Virus record (IMG/VR): IMGVR_UViG_3300044616_000808
Span: 1-22,125 of that record
Strand: one strand, 5' to 3'
Length of the DNA stretch: 22,125 nucleotides
Source of the DNA: a virus
Shown: positions 839-18,415 of the stretch, piece after piece
Position numbering within the stretch: the first letter of the stretch is position 1
How the letters are laid out: each line of letters starts with the position of its first letter
The notes under the pieces: model-generated
What the model was told of the DNA's origin: nothing
The model's database searches: none
Seen by the model: the letters and a program-made list of their open reading frames with translations, nothing else
Translations under genes and position numbers: made by a program

Positions 839-870
839 GTGTGTGTTGGTTTTGGTTTTGCTTATCCGAA

Positions 871-950
871 TTTCAAATTCAAATTTCAAATTTAAATTCT
901 AAACTCGGATTTCAAAATCAAAATTGGTTTTCTAAATTCAAATTTCAAAA
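871..950. repeat. AT-rich spacer with an exact 16-bp direct repeat
   Basis: AAATTCAAATTTCAAA occurs at 875-890 and again at 934-949. The material between and around is made of related words (TTTCAAA, AAATTTAAATT, ATCAAAATTGG). This forms the - strand leader of the 90-aa gene. Shorter spacers of the same flavour precede the genes at 521 and 329. Confidence 0.75.
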
Positions 951-1171: not shown

Positions 1172-1378
1172 TTAGAGTATGCCTCTCATGATGTCCCGAT
1201 ATAAACGACGGTTTTCGGTGTGTAACTCGCGGCAAGCGCGCGCAAACTGTACTCGCCAGGATAGGCGCTGAGCTTGCCAAAATTCGGGTTTTAGACGGCT
1301 TATAGCGTAGCAGAGCACCTCTCGGTGCGAGTCTGCTACGTTACAGCGTGAAACGATGGAAAAGAGGGCGGTTTTCAT
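1172..1378 (-). CDS. Hypothetical protein, 68 aa, last gene of GP88 operon
   Basis: The protein begins MKTALFSIVSRCNVADSHREV and continues with RLKPEFWQAQRLSWRVQFAR and ENRRLYRDIMRGIL, a basic, mostly helical sequence with no membrane segment. I do not recognise the family. Its ATG overlaps the stop of the GP88 gene by one base (TAATG on the - strand), which implies translational coupling, and an intrinsic terminator follows 17 bp after its stop. The coupling and terminator make it a real gene. A role linked to the GP88 protein is an inference from operon position only. Confidence 0.7.
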   Translation of the reverse strand: MKTALFSIVSRCNVADSHREVLCYAISRLKPEFWQAQRLSWRVQFARACRELHTENRRLYRDIMRGIL

Positions 1379-1983
1379 TAATGGAGTCTGTAGGTGACCG
1401 TTTGAACGCTCTTATCCCAACAGTTGCGACAGTCGCCGCACTTGTTGCCCTGCGCAGGCGCAGGACAGGTCCCCTCCGTTGATGAGACTTCGCTGGTGGT
1501 AAGGCCCATATGCTGCGCGAGACTGTTAGGGCCAGCTTTATCTACCATGTAAGCGGAAAGACGCACAGTAAGGTTAGCTGGAAACGGGCCGTAGAGCTCG
1601 AAATACTCACTGACAATCCCATACTCTTTAGTCGGGAGCCAGAATTGTATTTCAGGCAACGCTAGAGCAATGCGAACGATACTTTTGAGCGTTTTTAGAG
1701 ACTGTAAGTCGCCACTATCGAACCATCGAAAATATCCGCTTTTCTCTGTACTGCGGATTTTTTCGATCATCGCTGGCACCCATTGGGGCGAGTCCATTAG
1801 GGCGAGACGCTCTTGCAAGGCACGCTGCACGTTAGGCATGCGATAAAAGCCGGATAAGGCATAGCAGCCATGGCATACAGAGCCAGCGACTTGAGCGAGC
1901 TTACTGCCCGTTTTGCATGCTAAAGCGGGTACTGACCAGCCTTGGCAAGGCATCTTTGATGGTTGTGAGAGGGTGAGTTTCAT
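1378..1983 (-). CDS. GP88-family phage protein, 201 aa
   Basis: The sequence fits what I know of the 'gene product 88' family of actinophages and other phages: KTGSKLAQVAGSVCHGCYALSGFYR near residues 24-48, YFRWFDSGDLQS at 84-95, FWLPTKEY at 114-121, NLTVRLSAYMVD at 137-148, and a C-terminal cysteine cluster C173, C182, C185, C188 (CGDCRNCW). C37 and C40 form a CxxCY motif. Eight cysteines in two groups suggest a metal or iron-sulphur site. The family has no established biochemical function that I know of, and I do not assign one. Length looks complete. It is the middle gene of a - strand operon, 35 bp after a 47-aa membrane protein and overlapping the 68-aa gene. No Shine-Dalgarno sequence is visible before the ATG. 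Confidence 0.85.
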   Translation of the reverse strand: MKLTLSQPSKMPCQGWSVPALACKTGSKLAQVAGSVCHGCYALSGFYRMPNVQRALQERLALMDSPQWVPAMIEKIRSTEKSGYFRWFDSGDLQSLKTLKSIVRIALALPEIQFWLPTKEYGIVSEYFELYGPFPANLTVRLSAYMVDKAGPNSLAQHMGLTTSEVSSTEGTCPAPAQGNKCGDCRNCWDKSVQTVTYRLH

Positions 1984-3996: not shown

Positions 3997-6111
3997 ATGA
4001 ATGAAGAAAATCAGGAAATTATCGAGAAAGTTTTAGCCTACAAGCTGGAGGATCATCCAATCCTGCCTGCGCCTAATAAGCGGGAAAGGTTGGCTATGAT
4101 CCAGAACATTGGCCCGGAGAAGGTGCTTGATCTGTTCCTTATGCGGGAGAACAAGATTAAGGCTGAACAGAACGATCCGATGCGCTATGGCCACGAACTG
4201 GCGCACTGGCCCGACGCGGACAGCCTGCTCAACCGTTTTAACGAGACGGTCATCCTTGGCGGGAATAGATGCCTGGCTGGGGAGACGGAGATCACAGATG
4301 CCAAGACCGGCAAGAAGCTGCGCGTAGATGCCATCAACAAGCCGTTTCATGTTCTGGCCATAGATGAATCAACCGGGCAGGTTGTGGTGGCTGAGGCTGA
4401 GGTTCCTTTCAAGAAAGAAAATGCGGATCTCTTTGAGGTAAAGACAAACCTTGGCACATCGGTTGTTTGCTCAGGGGCACACCTTGTTTTGTGCAAAGAT
4501 AAAACGTGGATGCCTATTTCAAAGCTGTCTACCAGCTCTGAGCTCTTTCATCCATGTGAAGACCTTAAGATAGAGTCAGTGCAATTTATACGGAATGACG
4601 TTGTGTGGGATTTCACCGTCCCAGTATATCATAACTACATACATGCGGCGATAACCCATCACAATTCAGGAAAAACCGAGTACGCAGCCAAACGGATGGC
4701 TCAAGCGTTCATCGGCACTGACCTGTCCGGCACTACACCCGACTGGATCAAGGAACGCCAGGGTAAACGCAACATCCGCATCTGGTGTTTGCACACGACC
4801 CACATGACCAGCGTGTCAGCACAGCAGAACGTATTCTATAAGTACCTTCCACCAGAGATTCGCAACATTAAACGTACTAATCATACGCAAATTAGTTTTA
4901 GCCAAAAGAACGGCTTTAGCGACAATACGGCGGTGTACATGGGCAACCAGATCTGGTTCCTGAACTATGCCCAGGACATTAAGGTGGTCGAAGGTGGCGA
5001 GGTGGACTACGTCTGGTGCGACGAGCTTGTCCCGCAGAACTGGCTGGAGACCCTCCGCTACCGGCTTGTGACACGCTCAGGCAAGCTGATCGTCACCTTT
5101 ACGCCGGTGCAAGGGTACACCCAGGTCGTGAAGGAGTACATCAACAGTACCAAGGTCACCGTCAGCCGCCCCTCGCCGCTCTTGCCCAATAGCAACGTCC
5201 TTACCGTACCCAAGGGTGAGATGCCCTACATGGCCGAGAACCTGTACGGACGACACGCCTGCATCTGGTATCATACCGAGCTTAACCCGTACAACAACTG
5301 GGAACGGATGAAGCAGGAGCTTTCGGGGCGCTCCAGCCACGACATCAAGATCCGCGCTTATGGCTGGGCAGATCAGACGGCTGGCTCCGAGTTTCCCATG
5401 TTTGGTGACCACAACCTGTGGAAGGGGGAGCCGGAAGACTTGATCCCCGAAGGAAGCAACTACATGACCGTTGACCCTGCCGGGGCGCGGAACTGGTTCA
5501 TGCTCTGGGGTAGGGTGGATAAATACGGTATACTTTGGGTCTACCGTGAATGGCCCGACCAAAGCTACGGGGAATGGGCGCTCCCTAGTGACAAGGCCGA
5601 CGGTCGAGCTGGCCCGGCACAGAAGGCGGGTGCAGGTCGCGGGGTGAACGAGTATACGGACTTGATCTGGAGCCTGGAGACGGCTGGCGACCGGCGCGAG
5701 ATGATCGTTGACCGTTGGATTGACCCAAGGACGGCTGGCACGGAGACGATCACCCGTGATGGGGGTGTTACAGTGTTGGACTTGCTTAATCAGACAGATA
5801 ATCCACTTATATTTACTCCTGCCGCCGCCATGCCAATTGAAGAGCGGGTGATGTTAATCAATGATCTTTTGTCATGGGATAGAGAAAAACCAATGGAAAA
5901 AGGTGTAAACCATCCCAAGTTAATGGTGCATGAGCGTTGTCAGAACTTGATTTACAGTTTAAAGGAATGGACTGGACAAGATGGACAAAAAGGTGCTAGT
6001 AAAGATCCAATTGACGCCTTAGGATATATGGTGGTTATGCAGCCACAATACTTCGGCGGTGAACAATGGGAAAAGCAAATGAGGCAAATGGCTCAAAGCG
6101 GCTCTTATTGA
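3997..6111 (+). CDS. terL: Terminase large subunit with intein in Walker A
   Basis: This is the ATP-driven DNA-packaging motor and nuclease that docks on the portal. The 704-residue precursor contains a 132-residue intein (residues 92-223); the mature protein would be 572 residues. The extein join restores GGNR-SGKTEYAAK, a typical terminase Walker A. Walker B is DYVWCDE (337-343, with D342 and E343), and TFTP (367-370) fits the coupling motif. The C-terminal RNase H-like nuclease shows D493 in MTVDPAG, D576 in RWIDP and D670/D673 in KDPIDALGY. The ATG at 3997 lies after the structured region and lacks a Shine-Dalgarno sequence. The portal gene starts 13 bp after the stop. Base composition changes sharply near 5760: 42 of 60 bases are G or C at 5581-5640, against 24 of 60 at 5881-5940, while the protein remains terminase-like. 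This suggests a recombination junction. No small terminase is visible in the window. Confidence 0.95.
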   Translation: MNEENQEIIEKVLAYKLEDHPILPAPNKRERLAMIQNIGPEKVLDLFLMRENKIKAEQNDPMRYGHELAHWPDADSLLNRFNETVILGGNRCLAGETEITDAKTGKKLRVDAINKPFHVLAIDESTGQVVVAEAEVPFKKENADLFEVKTNLGTSVVCSGAHLVLCKDKTWMPISKLSTSSELFHPCEDLKIESVQFIRNDVVWDFTVPVYHNYIHAAITHHNSGKTEYAAKRMAQAFIGTDLSGTTPDWIKERQGKRNIRIWCLHTTHMTSVSAQQNVFYKYLPPEIRNIKRTNHTQISFSQKNGFSDNTAVYMGNQIWFLNYAQDIKVVEGGEVDYVWCDELVPQNWLETLRYRLVTRSGKLIVTFTPVQGYTQVVKEYINSTKVTVSRPSPLLPNSNVLTVPKGEMPYMAENLYGRHACIWYHTELNPYNNWERMKQELSGRSSHDIKIRAYGWADQTAGSEFPMFGDHNLWKGEPEDLIPEGSNYMTVDPAGARNWFMLWGRVDKYGILWVYREWPDQSYGEWALPSDKADGRAGPAQKAGAGRGVNEYTDLIWSLETAGDRREMIVDRWIDPRTAGTETITRDGGVTVLDLLNQTDNPLIFTPAAAMPIEERVMLINDLLSWDREKPMEKGVNHPKLMVHERCQNLIYSLKEWTGQDGQKGASKDPIDALGYMVVMQPQYFGGEQWEKQMRQMAQSGSY
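4270..4665 (+). other. Mini-intein (132 aa) inserted in TerL Walker A loop
   Basis: The insert starts with Cys92 in block A (CLAGETEITD) and ends with His222-Asn223, followed by Ser224 as the +1 nucleophile. Block B is around GTSVVCSGAHLVL (153-165) with H162; the usual Thr of the TxxH motif is Ser159. Block F is VVWDFTVPVYHNYI (202-215) with D205 and H212-N213. Block G is ITHHN. With only about 130 residues there is no room for a homing endonuclease, so this is a splicing-only mini-intein. Removal joins GGNR to SGKTE. Until splicing, the P-loop is split and the terminase should not bind ATP properly. Confidence 0.93.
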
Positions 6112-13238: not shown

Positions 13239-14525
13239 ATGGGTATCAGAATTACAGATTTGCCAGTAGCAAACACGGTTGAATTAGCCGATACACTTGT
13301 TATTGTTCAAAATGGAGACACTAAAAAGTGCCAAGTTGTTCAAGTCAGGTCGTTGAATGCTTCGGAAATTACCAGCGGCACATTAAACGCAGCTCGTCTG
13401 CCGTTGATTCCAGTATCTACTGGAGGCACAGGATCTACTGATGCCGTTTCTGCGCTTGCTACACTTGGAGCGCAACCCGCTCTTACATCAAGTGCGCCTG
13501 CTGGAATTACGCAGGGCGGAACTGGAGAGACAACAGCAGAGGCCGCGCTAACTGCGCTTGGGGGCGTCAGCCTTCAGCAGTTTAACTCTACAAACATTAT
13601 TGCGGGAGATGGCCTTGTTGGCGGCGGAGCGTTGTCCACGAGCAACATTATTGCTTTGCAAACCACAGGAGTGGCTGCTGGCACATTTGGAAGCGCGTCA
13701 ACGGTTGCTCAGTTTACGGTTAATGACAAGGGGCAAATCACCAATGCCGAAAATGTGGGGATTTCAGGATCGGCTGGAGGAACGGTTGTAGCTGTTGGCG
13801 CAACGTCTAGCACACTTTCTGTTTCTGGCAGCCCTGTAATTTATTCGGGTGCGCTTCAGATTAATTTAGCCACAACTGGCATTCAAGCCATTACGGCTGG
13901 ATCCAGCACCCAATGCCCAGTCATTACAGTTGACACATACGGGCGAGTCACTTCGCTTACAACCACCACAATCAATTCACTTACTCCAAGCGGAGTTGTT
14001 CCCGGAACTTACGGAACCGCATCACAAATCCCAGCGTTTACAGTAGATCAATTTGGGAGAATTACGTCAGGCACAAACAATTCAATTTCTTTAATTGGAT
14101 CAACGCTCTCATCAATCAGGGAAAACATTACTGTAACCGCAACTGCCGCTTCAGCAGGAACAACAATTCAATTTGATGCGTTAACGCAAAATGTACTGTA
14201 TTACACGCTGCCAGCCACGGGAACATTTAGATTAAACATACGAGGAAATTCGTCAACAACCCTGCTTGACTACATGTCAGTTGGACAGTCAATTTCAATT
14301 ATCTTTTTAACTGAAACTGGAAATCCAGCATACGGAATGAGCCCAAATAGTCCACCCACTATTGATGGTATTAATTTGGAATTTCCAGTAAAATGGGTTA
14401 ATGGCACATTTCCAACACCCACTACAAATGCTGTAAACGCATACTTGTTTACAATCATAAAAACTACAAGCAACGCCTTAGGCTGGAGAGTGCTTGGTGA
14501 AATGATTTCTTACAAAGGGTCGTAA
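13239..14525 (+). CDS. Tail fibre protein 1, 428 aa
   Basis: The N-terminal module ITDLPVANTVELADTLVIVQ (5-24) resembles the N-terminus of the next gene product and is probably the virion-attachment part. Two copies of the phage fibre repeat GGTG.T..A..AL..LG follow (about 62-77 and 93-108). Then come three beta repeats of about 32 residues, each ending in V(D/N)..G.(I/V)T: 142-173, 212-243 and 250-281. The C-terminal 140 residues may be the tip domain. Gly, Thr, Ser and Ala dominate, as in trimeric fibres. The role would be adsorption to the host surface. No Shine-Dalgarno sequence; the leader is CAGGTTAATT. No chaperone or protease motif is visible. Confidence 0.82.
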   Translation: MGIRITDLPVANTVELADTLVIVQNGDTKKCQVVQVRSLNASEITSGTLNAARLPLIPVSTGGTGSTDAVSALATLGAQPALTSSAPAGITQGGTGETTAEAALTALGGVSLQQFNSTNIIAGDGLVGGGALSTSNIIALQTTGVAAGTFGSASTVAQFTVNDKGQITNAENVGISGSAGGTVVAVGATSSTLSVSGSPVIYSGALQINLATTGIQAITAGSSTQCPVITVDTYGRVTSLTTTTINSLTPSGVVPGTYGTASQIPAFTVDQFGRITSGTNNSISLIGSTLSSIRENITVTATAASAGTTIQFDALTQNVLYYTLPATGTFRLNIRGNSSTTLLDYMSVGQSISIIFLTETGNPAYGMSPNSPPTIDGINLEFPVKWVNGTFPTPTTNAVNAYLFTIIKTTSNALGWRVLGEMISYKGS

Positions 14526-14548
14526 GTTTGGTTTAATCAATTAATTGT

Positions 14549-17500
14549 ATGCCTGACATTAAAATTTCTGCTCTTCCTTCGGCGTCTACTGTAAATGATG
14601 CTGATATTTTTGTTTTAAACCAAAGCGGGGAAACTAAAACCGCAGCTAAATCGCTTATTACGGCAGGTCTAGCGGGGACTTCTCAGCTATCCGGCTTTAC
14701 AAACACCGCTCAAGTGGAGGCTTTAGCTTCCGCTCAAATCGCGGCAATTACGCCAGCTTCTATTGGAGCTGTGGCTACTGGCGATGTCATTGCTATCAGT
14801 AACGGCGGCACCGGGGCAACAGACGCTGTCAGCGCGTTAGCCAACCTCGGTGGGATTACTTCCGCTCAAGTGCCTGCATTCAACACGCAGCAGCTGAATG
14901 CTTATGTGCTGAAGTCTGGCTCAACGATGGACGGTCGCCTCATCATGGCCGCAACCACGGATCAGGCTAAGGCTAACATTGGGGGGTTAATTGGAACATT
15001 AAATCCATCTACTGTAACGGCAGGGGATCTTTGGATAAGCAGCCAGAGCAAATTAACATTTTCTCCTTCATCTGGGGTCAACATAACTGTTCCCGGTCTT
15101 ACTCAATCAAACACATTCAATCAGCCGCAAACCATTGGCGTTGGCGGCACTTCAACGTCACTTGCGGTAAATCAAAGCGGCACAGGCCGCGCAGCTACGT
15201 TCGCAGCCAACTCTACGGCTCCTGCTGTTGCAATCACGCAGACTGGCACTGGTGCTGCGCTTTCGGTGGACAGTAAAGGGATTTCGTTCTATGACGGAAC
15301 GGTTCAAACAGGCGGCACGGGCCATTACGTGACTGGGCTGGCAGCTTTGGTAAATCAAGCTGGAACGTCAAACACTGTTCCTGTTCCCAACACGTTTACT
15401 TACTCTACCTTTGGCACCCCTTCAATTGACGGCCAAAATATTACTCTTGGCGTTGTAGTTCTTTTTACGGCTCAGTCTGATGCAAAACAAAACGGGCCAT
15501 GGATTGTAACTGCCATGAACGTAAGCAGCGTTTCTGGCGCTGTCTTGACTCGACCAACATGGTTTAGCGGAACTATCTATCAAGGGGTCACCGTTAGTGT
15601 TGGCGCTGGCAATACACGTTCTGGATACATCTACAACGTAGGCAAGGCTACAGGCGGAGCTATTAATGTTGGCTCAAGCGACATCTCTGTTTCTGTTGTC
15701 AACTACAATCAAAATGCGGTTGGCACGGCTCAGATTTCTGGCTTTGCAACTACCGCGCAACTCGGTAGCTACGCGACCACTTCGCAGATTTCTGGCATTG
15801 CCACAACTGCACAGCTTTCAGGGTTTGCTACAACCGAGCAGCTTGGCGGCTACGCAACCACAACACAGATCAGCACGCTTCAGCCTGCACTAACATCTGC
15901 CGCGCCCCTAGCCATCTCGCAAGGTGGAACTGGAGCGACTACTGACATTGCCGCACTAACAAACCTTGGTGCCTTGTCTGCGACTGCCGCTGCTGGCGGA
16001 GATCTGTCTGGCAACTACCCGAACCCGACGGTTGCAAAGATTCAAGGTCAGGCTGTGTCTGCCACTACGCCAACCAGTGGACAAGTGTTGACTTGGAATG
16101 GCTCGGCATGGGTGGCTACAGCGCCTGCTACTGGCGGATCTGGTGGTGGTGGAGTGTTGTTCTACCTTAATTATGGCACAAACCCAGATGCGCCTGCTCC
16201 GGCTGGCTCCAAAGAGCTGGGACGTGTTGCCGAGGTGGCTCAGACTTCCGTGCAGTCAGCGGTGCTTACCAGTGGCGTTTGGACTGACATTGCTGGGTTT
16301 GTTTCAGACACACTTGATCCCAACCTTCAGGACATCCCAGCTGGTATCTTTGACTTCAACGTGTGGGCTAAGTCAGACGCAAACGCAAATGCGCCGACAC
16401 TGTTGCGTGTGCAGGTTTACAAGTGGGATGGCACAACTTCGACGTTGATTGCCACGTCCGGCACTGCTGTTGTCAGCAACAACGGCACCACGGTTCAGAC
16501 TGCCATTTCGGTGGTGATCCCGCAGACCGATGTAACGCCATCCGACAGGCTCTACATTCTCTTGCAGGTGCAGGCTTCTGCCGCAGGACATACCGCCACA
16601 ATTGAGTTTGGCGACGGTACGCCTTCTCACGTTCACACGACGATCCCGTCGGTAGGCGGCACAGGTGTGGTAAAGGTCATTAACGGTGTCCCGCAGAACC
16701 CGGCATCACTAATCACCGACTCGGATGTCTCAAGCGCAGCGCCCCTTGCACTGGACAAGGTGCAGATGGGTCAGGTGAGCGTTCTTGCTGGAGACGGCTT
16801 GACTGGCGGCGGAGATCTTTCGACCAGCCGCACGCTTGCGCTTGTCACCACTGGAATTGCCGCGATTACAGCAGGATCATCTTCAGTTGTGCCTGTTATC
16901 ACGACCAACATTTACGGTCAAATCACGGCACTTACAACAGAGGCTATCCCCGCAGGCACATCTGGCACTGTAACGGCTATTACGGCGGGCGCTGGGCTTA
17001 CAGGCGGCACCATCACTAGCGATGGCATCATTGCCCTTGAAACGGCTGGTCCGGGCGTATTAACCAACGTAGGCTCCAGCGCAGCGGTGCCTGTCATTAG
17101 CGTGGACGCTTACGGGCGCATCAGTGCGCTTGAGACGGCCTCTTTGTCTGGATTAGGCACAGTGACGAGCATCGCCATGACAAGCCAAGTGTCCGGCCTG
17201 TCATTTTCGCCAACGAGCGCAATCACCGACAATGGCACGTTCAACCTGACTGGTACGCTTGACGTTTCCAACGGCGGGACGGGCGCTACTGACGCGCCAT
17301 CGGCGCTGAGCAACCTTGGCGGGATCACCTCAGATGCACTGAGTGGACTGGCGACAACGGGCCAGCTATCTGCCTACCAGCCTGCGCTTACGACGGCTGC
17401 TCCGCTGGGGATCGAGCTTGGTGGTACTGGAGCAATCACACAAGAAGCCGCTCGCACTGCAATGGGCGGGCTTCAACAAGTTGACTACTACATTAGTGCT

Positions 17501-18415
17501 GCAATTGCAGGGTCAATGACCACAACTGGAATAAATGTATTAACTTACAATACTCCTGCTGTACTTACGATTGAAGGCATTGCGCCATCTGTGGGTGATA
17601 CGGTTTTTGTTGGCGGACAGACAGGCTCTACAAACCCTACCAACATAGCAAATGGGCCGTGGATTATCACAAGAGTTGGAACCGCAAGTGTCACGACAGA
17701 ATTAACGCGCCCAACATGGTTTTCTGGAACCGTAAAAAACAACACGATATGTGCTATTAAATACGGCAGCGGAAGTGCTGGGACTGTAAGGGCCGCTATT
17801 GGGCCAACAACTACGTCAAAAACAGATATCAATGTTGGGACAACCGCAATAACTACACCTCTTGTTTCGTCAAGAAATAGTAACGCAATTACCGCTGCCA
17901 ATATATTTACTTCGCGGCAAACCTTTGTAGCAAATTCAACCACGCTTAACCCAATTAGCTTCAGCACAGCCGCTGCCACACTCCTTTCCACCCGCGCACT
18001 TGGCGCTCTTGAGTGGGACAACACGCAGCTCTACATTACCGAGTCCAATCAGTTCTCTGTGCTTAACAGAACGCCAATTGCCACGGCAATGGTGCTTATT
18101 AACGCGCAGACTGGCACGACGTTTACGCCTGTTGTGACTTCTCCAAGTGACGCTGGCAAGTTAATCACGCTTAGTAATCCAAATTCAATTACGGTAACAA
18201 TTGCTGCTGACACAGGCTCTGTTATAACCGACTTTCCTGTTGGCACACAGCTTCTAATGATGCAGCTTGACGCAGGTCAGGTGACAGTGTCCGGGGCCGC
18301 TGGTGTAACCATTGTTAGCAAGAACGGGACAAAAACTGCTGGTCAATACTCGCTGATTTCGCTAATCAAAATAGCCGGGAACCAGTGGGTCGTTGGTGGC
18401 GATGCAACAACTTAA
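14549..18415 (+). CDS. Large tail fibre protein 2, 1288 aa
   Basis: This is the longest gene in the window. The N-terminus (ISALPSASTVNDADIFVLNQ, 5-24) is related to that of fibre 1. Further on are several GGTGATDA.SALANLG-type repeats, five tandem 9-residue units of the type AQISGFATT (nt 15728-15862), the fibre segment GGDLSGNYPNPTVAKIQGQA, and beta repeats such as VPVITTNIYGQITALTTEAI and VPVISVDAYGRISALETASL, related to those of fibre 1. A domain containing NGPW(I)(V/I)T and LTRPTWFSGT occurs twice, near nt 15380-15700 and 17530-17870. A lectin-like or carbohydrate-binding domain is possible around nt 16150-16650 (VLFYLNYGTNPDAPAPAGSK). Base composition alternates along the gene, consistent with mosaic assembly. 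The role is probably host-receptor contact. Confidence 0.85.
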   Translation: MPDIKISALPSASTVNDADIFVLNQSGETKTAAKSLITAGLAGTSQLSGFTNTAQVEALASAQIAAITPASIGAVATGDVIAISNGGTGATDAVSALANLGGITSAQVPAFNTQQLNAYVLKSGSTMDGRLIMAATTDQAKANIGGLIGTLNPSTVTAGDLWISSQSKLTFSPSSGVNITVPGLTQSNTFNQPQTIGVGGTSTSLAVNQSGTGRAATFAANSTAPAVAITQTGTGAALSVDSKGISFYDGTVQTGGTGHYVTGLAALVNQAGTSNTVPVPNTFTYSTFGTPSIDGQNITLGVVVLFTAQSDAKQNGPWIVTAMNVSSVSGAVLTRPTWFSGTIYQGVTVSVGAGNTRSGYIYNVGKATGGAINVGSSDISVSVVNYNQNAVGTAQISGFATTAQLGSYATTSQISGIATTAQLSGFATTEQLGGYATTTQISTLQPALTSAAPLAISQGGTGATTDIAALTNLGALSATAAAGGDLSGNYPNPTVAKIQGQAVSATTPTSGQVLTWNGSAWVATAPATGGSGGGGVLFYLNYGTNPDAPAPAGSKELGRVAEVAQTSVQSAVLTSGVWTDIAGFVSDTLDPNLQDIPAGIFDFNVWAKSDANANAPTLLRVQVYKWDGTTSTLIATSGTAVVSNNGTTVQTAISVVIPQTDVTPSDRLYILLQVQASAAGHTATIEFGDGTPSHVHTTIPSVGGTGVVKVINGVPQNPASLITDSDVSSAAPLALDKVQMGQVSVLAGDGLTGGGDLSTSRTLALVTTGIAAITAGSSSVVPVITTNIYGQITALTTEAIPAGTSGTVTAITAGAGLTGGTITSDGIIALETAGPGVLTNVGSSAAVPVISVDAYGRISALETASLSGLGTVTSIAMTSQVSGLSFSPTSAITDNGTFNLTGTLDVSNGGTGATDAPSALSNLGGITSDALSGLATTGQLSAYQPALTTAAPLGIELGGTGAITQEAARTAMGGLQQVDYYISAAIAGSMTTTGINVLTYNTPAVLTIEGIAPSVGDTVFVGGQTGSTNPTNIANGPWIITRVGTASVTTELTRPTWFSGTVKNNTICAIKYGSGSAGTVRAAIGPTTTSKTDINVGTTAITTPLVSSRNSNAITAANIFTSRQTFVANSTTLNPISFSTAAATLLSTRALGALEWDNTQLYITESNQFSVLNRTPIATAMVLINAQTGTTFTPVVTSPSDAGKLITLSNPNSITVTIAADTGSVITDFPVGTQLLMMQLDAGQVTVSGAAGVTIVSKNGTKTAGQYSLISLIKIAGNQWVVGGDATT
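15728..15862 (+). repeat. Five tandem 27-bp (9-residue) repeats in fibre 2
   Basis: The encoded units are AQISGFATT, AQLGSYATT, SQISGIATT, AQLSGFATT and EQLGGYATT, followed by a partial TQIS. The amino-acid pattern is stronger than the base identity, so selection acts on the protein, as expected for a repetitive fibre shaft. Confidence 0.85.

What the first reader, a model, noticed from the sequence alone, without database searches (positions are those of the whole stretch)
4270..4665. Splicing-only mini-intein splitting the TerL Walker A motif
The 132-residue insert with blocks A, B, F and G lies between GGNR and SGKTE, the phosphate-binding loop of the packaging ATPase. It has no homing endonuclease, so it is maintained without its own mobility. 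Packaging motor activity must wait for splicing, which could serve as a timing or condition-sensing step. The block B position usually occupied by Thr is Ser.
Basis: partly seen in the sequence, partly recalled or inferred. Interest (0 to 1): 0.7.

Follow-up and report, generated by a model that had tools for sequence, protein, structure and literature searches.

The report
Intein with antisense-encoded homing endonuclease kin
A self-removing protein insert sits in the DNA-packaging motor gene of this phage, and it descends from a family of such inserts whose DNA also encodes, on the opposite strand, a cutting enzyme that appears to spread the insert between phages.

Summary
In detail: window 4270-4665 is a 132-aa mini-intein between GGNR and SGKTE of TerL. 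Pfam, NCBIfam, PDB sequence hits and an AlphaFold2 model (pLDDT 96.3; NpuDnaB intein, Z 20.6) agree. The interpretation needs changing. The same site was read in 80 close relatives: 49 empty, 15 mini, 14 longer inteins, 2 undetermined. The longer inteins carry an HNH endonuclease gene on the opposite strand, while the intein frame stays open through it. All 80 best HNH relatives in IMG/VR are nested this way, in terminase P-loops, in one phase. Variable sites switch from the intein's wobble position in the splicing parts to the HNH's wobble position inside the nest (p=3e-52). In 26 of 26 HNH clusters the intein frame has no stop, where synonymous shuffles give 4-10; free HNH genes show no such avoidance. 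One pair of phages shows a homing footprint. The window's mini-intein groups inside the HNH-bearing inteins, so it most likely lost the gene. Timing control of packaging is unsupported. Cultured phages (Pectobacterium phage Ymer group, Pseudoalteromonas PHS3) carry the same layout. I found no report of it in the papers I could read; one preprint cited there was not available.

The parts
3997..6111 (+). TerL (large terminase) precursor ORF, 704 aa including the intein
   Evidence: Pfam Terminase_6N 21.5 bits, just under its 22-bit cutoff
4258..4269 (+). GGNR, first half of the Walker A loop, end of the N-extein
   Evidence: sequence; joined to SGKT in the empty relatives
4270..4665 (+). mini-intein, 132 aa, Cys1 ... 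His-Asn, +1 Ser
4270..4308 (+). block A region, starting CLAGETEI
   Evidence: alignment A3; block name recalled
4453..4494 (+). block B region, G62...S68-G-A-H71
   Evidence: alignment A3; block name recalled
4549..4566 (+). short linker HPCEDL at the place where longer relatives hold the antisense HNH gene; inferred deletion scar
   Evidence: alignment A3, tree
4603..4641 (+). block F region, VWDFTVPVYHNYI
   Evidence: alignment A3; block name recalled
4645..4665 (+). block G, AAITHHN, C-terminal splice junction
   Evidence: alignment A3; block name recalled
4666..4680 (+). SGKTE, second half of Walker A, start of the C-extein
   Evidence: sequence

Best explanation
The window's insert is a class-1-type mini-intein that should excise itself from the TerL precursor and rebuild the Walker A loop. 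It is an HNH-less derivative of a lineage of terminase P-loop inteins that encode their homing endonuclease on the strand opposite to the intein. In the full-length members one DNA stretch is read twice: rightwards as an apparently unstructured loop of the intein, leftwards as an HNH endonuclease, often from what looks like its own promoter. The endonuclease would cut intein-free terminase genes in co-infecting phages, and repair would copy in the intein, the nested gene and a little flanking sequence. Shown by sequence: intein identity, empty sites, the nested HNH gene, selection on both frames, the mobile distribution and one co-conversion footprint. Inferred: splicing, expression of the HNH protein, cutting at the empty site, and loss rather than original absence of the gene in the window's copy.
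For: Same-site states in 80 relatives: 49 empty, 15 mini, 10 type A, 4 type B, 2 undetermined. Antisense ORFs are HNH_3 (43.5 and 47.1 bits, cutoff 24.8; PHROG E 1.9e-25 and 5.5e-21). 80 of 80 HNH relatives (the best 80 of 196) lie antisense inside an ORF that spans them, all in one phase; the C-terminal splice junction was read in each. 26 of 26 clusters have 0 stops in the intein frame against shuffled means of 4.15-10.39, P at most 0.002 each; controls: 72 free HNH genes, 488 stops seen, 534.8 expected, 1 of 72 with none. Variable sites by intein codon position 1/2/3: HNH part 61/202/42, N splicing part 45/21/137, C splicing part 14/9/56, p=3e-52. AF2 of a long intein: splicing parts confident, residues 95-258 almost all under pLDDT 50. 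L017 (intein+HNH) and L029 (empty): all differences near the site lie within 138 nt upstream and 9 nt downstream, then no difference for about 2.7 kb downstream. Mini clade 98/95, sister to type B at 100/99, inside HNH-bearing inteins. Promoter-like score upstream of the HNH start exceeds synonymous resampling at P<0.05 in 9 of 26 clusters, Fisher 1.4e-8. Cultured examples.
Against: Nothing was tested at the bench. A Shine-Dalgarno-like motif precedes the HNH start in only 6 of 26 clusters, and 17 of 26 clusters show no promoter signal at P<0.05 (L227 0.985, L126 0.571, L159 0.496). Type A ends in Lys-Asn, not His-Asn, and Pfam scores of the long inteins stay below the cutoff. Loss in the mini rests on a tree of 126 columns with many open forks and no certain root. 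Clusters and variable sites are not independent, so the p-values overstate. Co-divergence of HNH and splicing parts is modest (Spearman 0.34, p 0.005), and HNH also tracks the extein (0.27, p 0.012).
Confidence: 0.86

Rival explanations
1. The mini-intein is the original, endonuclease-free form, and the antisense HNH gene invaded relatives of it later.
For: Mini-inteins are compact, and the four tested form one clade. An HNH gene could land in the loop from outside: free HNH relatives exist.
Against: The nested layout, in the same phase, is spread across divergent terminases, and the minis sit next to type B inside the HNH-bearing set at 100/99. Loss needs one step; several separate gains would be needed otherwise.
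Confidence: 0.12
2. The antisense ORF is only a by-product: the sense loop is the functional part, and the reverse frame is open by chance.
For: Long antisense ORFs are common in GC-rich genes (phase-1 ORFs).
Against: HNH homology with E down to 1.9e-25, constraint on the HNH frame, and a sense loop with no confident fold.
Confidence: 0.01
3. The HNH gene interrupts TerL as a split intein: two intein halves are made separately and trans-splice, and the sense frame is not translated through the nest.
For: Split inteins with an endonuclease gene between the halves are known (recalled, Dassa et al. 2009; not held). The PHS3 record annotates TerL as starting after the HNH gene.
Against: The sense frame has no stop in 26 of 26 clusters against 4-10 expected, and in PHS3 a 708-aa frame spans the HNH.
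Confidence: 0.04
4. The intein is kept because conditional splicing times DNA packaging.
For: The insertion splits the ATP-binding loop, so unspliced TerL should be inactive (inference). Some inteins respond to conditions (recalled).
Against: 49 of 80 close relatives have no insert; presence changes repeatedly on the TerL tree; no sensing feature was found.
Confidence: 0.05

Closest known systems
Canonical inteins with an in-frame homing endonuclease domain, including phage TerL P-loop inteins (Kelley et al. 2016, PMC5050341, passages seen)
   Same: Hint splicing domain, insertion in the TerL P-loop, patchy distribution, endonuclease at the loop between blocks B and F (last point recalled).
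   Different: Here the full-length relatives encode the endonuclease on the opposite strand instead of as an in-frame domain, and the insertion is at GGNR^SGKT, not between Lys and Thr. The window's copy has none.
[quoted passage not shown] 2025, PMC11855218; abstract, sections 3.6 and 4.3 and passages seen)
   Same: A hidden HNH endonuclease overlaps a frame that stays open. The ShiLan HNH is a distant relative (37.6%).
   Different: ShiLan is out of frame (third frame) with no detectable splicing domain. Here the gene is antisense inside a recognisable intein.
Group I introns with homing endonuclease genes on the complementary strand (PMC2585584, passages seen)
   Same: The endonuclease gene lies antisense to the element's host gene.
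   Different: The intron is removed from RNA and its loop need not be translated; here the opposite frame must stay open because the intein is translated.
DnaB mini-inteins (1mi8, 4o1r)
   Same: Fold, size and splice-junction residues.
   Different: Host protein and insertion site; 26-29% identity over the structural alignment.

Membership tests
Intein (class 1 type) | Cys1, block B His, C-terminal Asn, Cys/Ser/Thr at +1 | tested here: met
   C1, H71, N132, +1 Ser
Intein (class 1 type) | Hint fold | tested here: met
   AF2 pLDDT 96.3; 4o1r Z 20.6, rmsd 1.7 over 131 residues
Intein (class 1 type) | in-frame insert absent from close homologues at the same site | tested here: met
   49 of 80 relatives empty at GGNR^SGKT
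Intein (class 1 type) | self-splicing | not testable with these tools
   needs expression of the precursor
Mini-intein derived from an antisense-HNH intein | splicing domain groups within antisense-HNH inteins | tested here: met
   four minis sister to type B at 100/99, inside HNH-bearing rows; root uncertain
Antisense-HNH intein, full member | the window copy itself carries the HNH gene | tested here: not met
   no HNH_3 match in the window record; the window copy is a derivative, not a full member
Antisense-HNH intein (the relatives) | HNH gene antisense within the intein, both frames under constraint | tested here: met
Antisense-HNH intein (the relatives) | HNH expressed and cuts the empty site | not testable with these tools
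   only a co-conversion-like footprint and promoter-like sites
ShiLan-type hidden HNH | same-strand out-of-frame HNH and no splicing domain | tested here: not met
   opposite strand and a Hint domain

The most novel reading that the evidence does not exclude
A widespread, previously undescribed class of intein encodes its homing endonuclease on the complementary strand of the splicing element, in one fixed phase, driven by its own promoter, so that one DNA segment is under selection as two proteins on opposite strands. It moves through phage terminase P-loops. The window's mini-intein is a natural endonuclease-loss product that may still be mobilised in trans.
Probability: 0.6. Interest if true: 0.88.

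Novelty: new variant of a known kind. Interest (0 to 1): 0.8.

Why it matters
Inteins are taught as one polypeptide with an in-frame endonuclease domain. If these relatives work as the sequences suggest, the endonuclease can be uncoupled from the host gene's expression by placing it on the other strand. That would let it act early while terminase is a late gene, and would leave a strong double-coding constraint that can be measured. Annotation misses or mangles such genes: the HNH is absent from the seven annotated Ymer-group records seen, and TerL is truncated in PHS3. Cultured phages make both the splicing and the homing directly testable.

Tried and rejected
Conditional-splicing role: no evidence found. 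tRNA, Rfam and tandem-repeat scans of the window gave no RNA gene and only short repeats. INPHARED holds one TerL homologue of the window protein at 29%, with no intein annotated. A blastn search of phage records with a nested HNH stretch found nothing. The Gosselin et al. 2025 preprint on actinobacteriophage inteins with 'non-canonical architecture' (cited in PMC11855218) is not held and was not read; it may describe related layouts. Papers in the listings were seen as listings only, save those quoted; of PMC1508164, PMC1635734 and PMC7886860 passages were seen and none describes an antisense endonuclease gene in an intein. Shine-Dalgarno motifs as a general rule for the nested gene: rejected, 6 of 26. 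First-pass shuffles mis-identified the HNH start in six type A alleles and found none in L068; those rows are not used, and one search replaces them. Of the 196 HNH relatives and the 141 only the best 80 each were kept and examined; of 218 TerL relatives only 80. In one search, 72 of 81 controls passed the length and completeness filter. In one search only clusters with at least two distinct equal-length inteins entered. Of the phage records with HNH matches (175, 41) eleven were opened.

Full report
What is at the coordinates. The ORF at 3997-6111 encodes a 704-aa terminase large subunit with a 132-residue insert at 4270-4665 between GGNR and SGKTE. The insert matches intein profiles and DnaB mini-inteins in the PDB. 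AlphaFold2, with 23 related inteins as alignment, gives pLDDT 96.3; the NpuDnaB and SspDnaB inteins are the best structural matches, Z 20.6 and 20.4. It is a mini-intein with Cys1, His-Asn and +1 Ser. The Ser in block B is shared by nearly all same-site inteins.

The site in relatives. A search with the C-extein gave 218 relatives in viral contigs; the best 80 were kept. Read at the same site, 49 are empty, 15 carry the 132-aa mini form, 10 carry a 314-aa intein (type A), 4 a 293-aa intein (type B) and 2 cannot be told. On a DNA tree of the C-extein (56 distinct rows) well-supported branches force at least 10 changes for empty, 6 for type A, 5 for mini and 3 for B. Presence is therefore fluid. 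For types A and B taken alone the number of changes is no lower than in many shuffles (220 and 500 of 500 as low), as expected of something that moves freely; the bootstrap was flagged as not fully settled.

The hidden gene. In types A and B the extra stretch holds, on the opposite strand, an ORF of 237 or 219 aa that is an HNH endonuclease: Pfam HNH_3 43.5 and 47.1 bits (cutoff 24.8) and PHROG HNH families with E 1.9e-25 and 5.5e-21. The two are 43% identical. Searching viral contigs with a three-sequence HNH alignment gave 196 relatives; the best 80 were kept without regard to context. All 80 lie antisense inside a longer ORF that spans them, all in the phase where first codon positions face each other, and the junction N^S[GASMT]K[TS] was read in each. 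The N-terminal GGN[RQ]^C was found by the pattern in 77 of 80; L146 and L154 are cut by the contig end and L166 reads GGNL^C. Two bacterial contigs (L215, L227; among 80 kept of 141) and nine isolate records (eight Pectobacterium/Dickeya phages of the Ymer group, and Pseudoalteromonas phage PHS3) have the same layout. L227 is at a different terminase site.

Both frames are constrained. With HNH genes clustered at 80% identity (91 sequences, 26 clusters), the intein frame has no stop within the HNH gene in 26 of 26, whereas synonymous shuffling of the HNH codons puts a mean of 4.15 to 10.39 stops there; at most 1 of 500 shuffles per cluster reached zero. Two of the 26 (L280, L227/L215) were picked because they are nested, and A and B were the discovery cases. 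For free HNH genes the same test finds 488 stops against 534.8 expected, none absent except in 1 of 72; with GC under 0.58, 0 of 38. Within clusters, variable sites in the HNH core fall on intein codon positions 1/2/3 as 61/202/42, the middle one being the HNH wobble position; in the N splicing part 45/21/137 and the C splicing part 14/9/56; the overprinted HNH tail shows 8/12/14 (Fisher p 3e-52, not corrected for shared ancestry). In the cultured Ymer group (8 records, 5 distinct sequences) the pattern repeats: extein 12/5/154, N splicing part 0/0/5, HNH tail over the N splicing part 4/4/3, HNH alone 4/18/7, C splicing part 2/0/8. AlphaFold2 of one long intein folds residues 1-94 and about 260-295 with confidence and leaves 95-258 almost wholly under pLDDT 50.

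Movement. L017 (type A) and L029 (empty) differ at six places within 138 nt upstream of the site, at four within 9 nt downstream, and nowhere else until 2766 nt downstream or, upstream, in the 501 nt held. L017's +1 Ser codon is the TCA found in all 9 other type A loci, while L029 has AGT. This is what co-conversion during homing would leave. Splicing-part distances follow HNH distances (Spearman 0.34, p 0.005) and not extein distances (0.08, p 0.23); HNH and extein distances also correlate (0.27, p 0.012) in 19 representatives.

Expression. Upstream of the HNH start, promoter-like scores exceed those of synonymously resampled intein codons at P<0.05 in 9 of 26 clusters (Fisher 1.4e-8; clusters not independent), and a perfect TTGACA is present in 13 of 26. 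Some of the best -10-like boxes lie about 26-41 nt upstream of the start, often with a Shine-Dalgarno-like motif; others end 6-11 nt before the start codon, as in leaderless genes. Shine-Dalgarno-like motifs occur in 6 of 26. This is suggestive only.

The window's copy. In a tree of splicing parts, the four minis (window, L008, L013, L026) form one clade (98/95) whose sister is type B (100/99), within rows that all carry the nested HNH. The simplest reading is one in-frame loss that left the linker HPCEDL (window 4549-4566). Ymer and L227 are long branches and the root is uncertain. No HNH_3 gene is found in the window or in the other mini-bearing records G001, G002 and G004, so any present mobility would have to come from outside.

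Known and new. Inteins in TerL P-loops are known (PMC5050341, passages). Endonuclease genes on the complementary strand are known in group I introns (PMC2585584, passages). An out-of-frame HNH without a splicing domain is known in phage methylases (PMC11855218; abstract, two sections and passages). The Ymer paper does not mention intein or HNH (PMC11445585, term search). Ten literature searches showed no intein with an antisense endonuclease gene; they cover open-licence PMC papers only, and one relevant preprint could not be read. I therefore call it a new variant of a known kind.

Noticed in passing
L160, L133, L144, L166 (terminase ORFs of 1051-1175 aa): Besides the P-loop intein with the antisense HNH, these terminases carry a second intein-like segment further downstream (in L160 and L166 with residues resembling an in-frame LAGLIDADG endonuclease; label recalled).
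   Followed up: partly
L286 (Pseudoalteromonas phage PHS3, KX912252.1) 703-2826 -: The record annotates TerL as starting after the HNH gene; the open frame in fact spans it, so the P-loop half and the intein are missing from the annotated protein.
   Followed up: partly
L227 2877-5192 - (Polynucleobacter contig): A terminase-like ORF holds an intein at a site other than the P-loop (HEY^C ... NKN^C), again with an antisense HNH in the same phase.
   Followed up: partly
L106 and L107 2800-5509: A radical-SAM-like ORF (label recalled) holds an intein-like segment with an in-frame HNH-like stretch, and a free HNH gene of similar sequence lies just upstream, overlapping its start.
   Followed up: no
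window 869-950 and 540-567: AT-rich imperfect tandem repeats among short ORFs.
   Followed up: no
window 1378-1983 (-): Homologue of Gene product 88 (Pfam PF17338, E 3.4e-25), one of the few likely leftward genes.
   Followed up: no
window 13239-18415: Two neighbouring tail-like ORFs (428 and 1288 aa) share a similar N-terminus and repeated GGTGATDAVSAL-type modules.
   Followed up: no
L108 1012-3747 (+): Another terminase-like ORF has an intein-like insert with an HNH-like stretch in frame, i.e. the classical arrangement.
   Followed up: no
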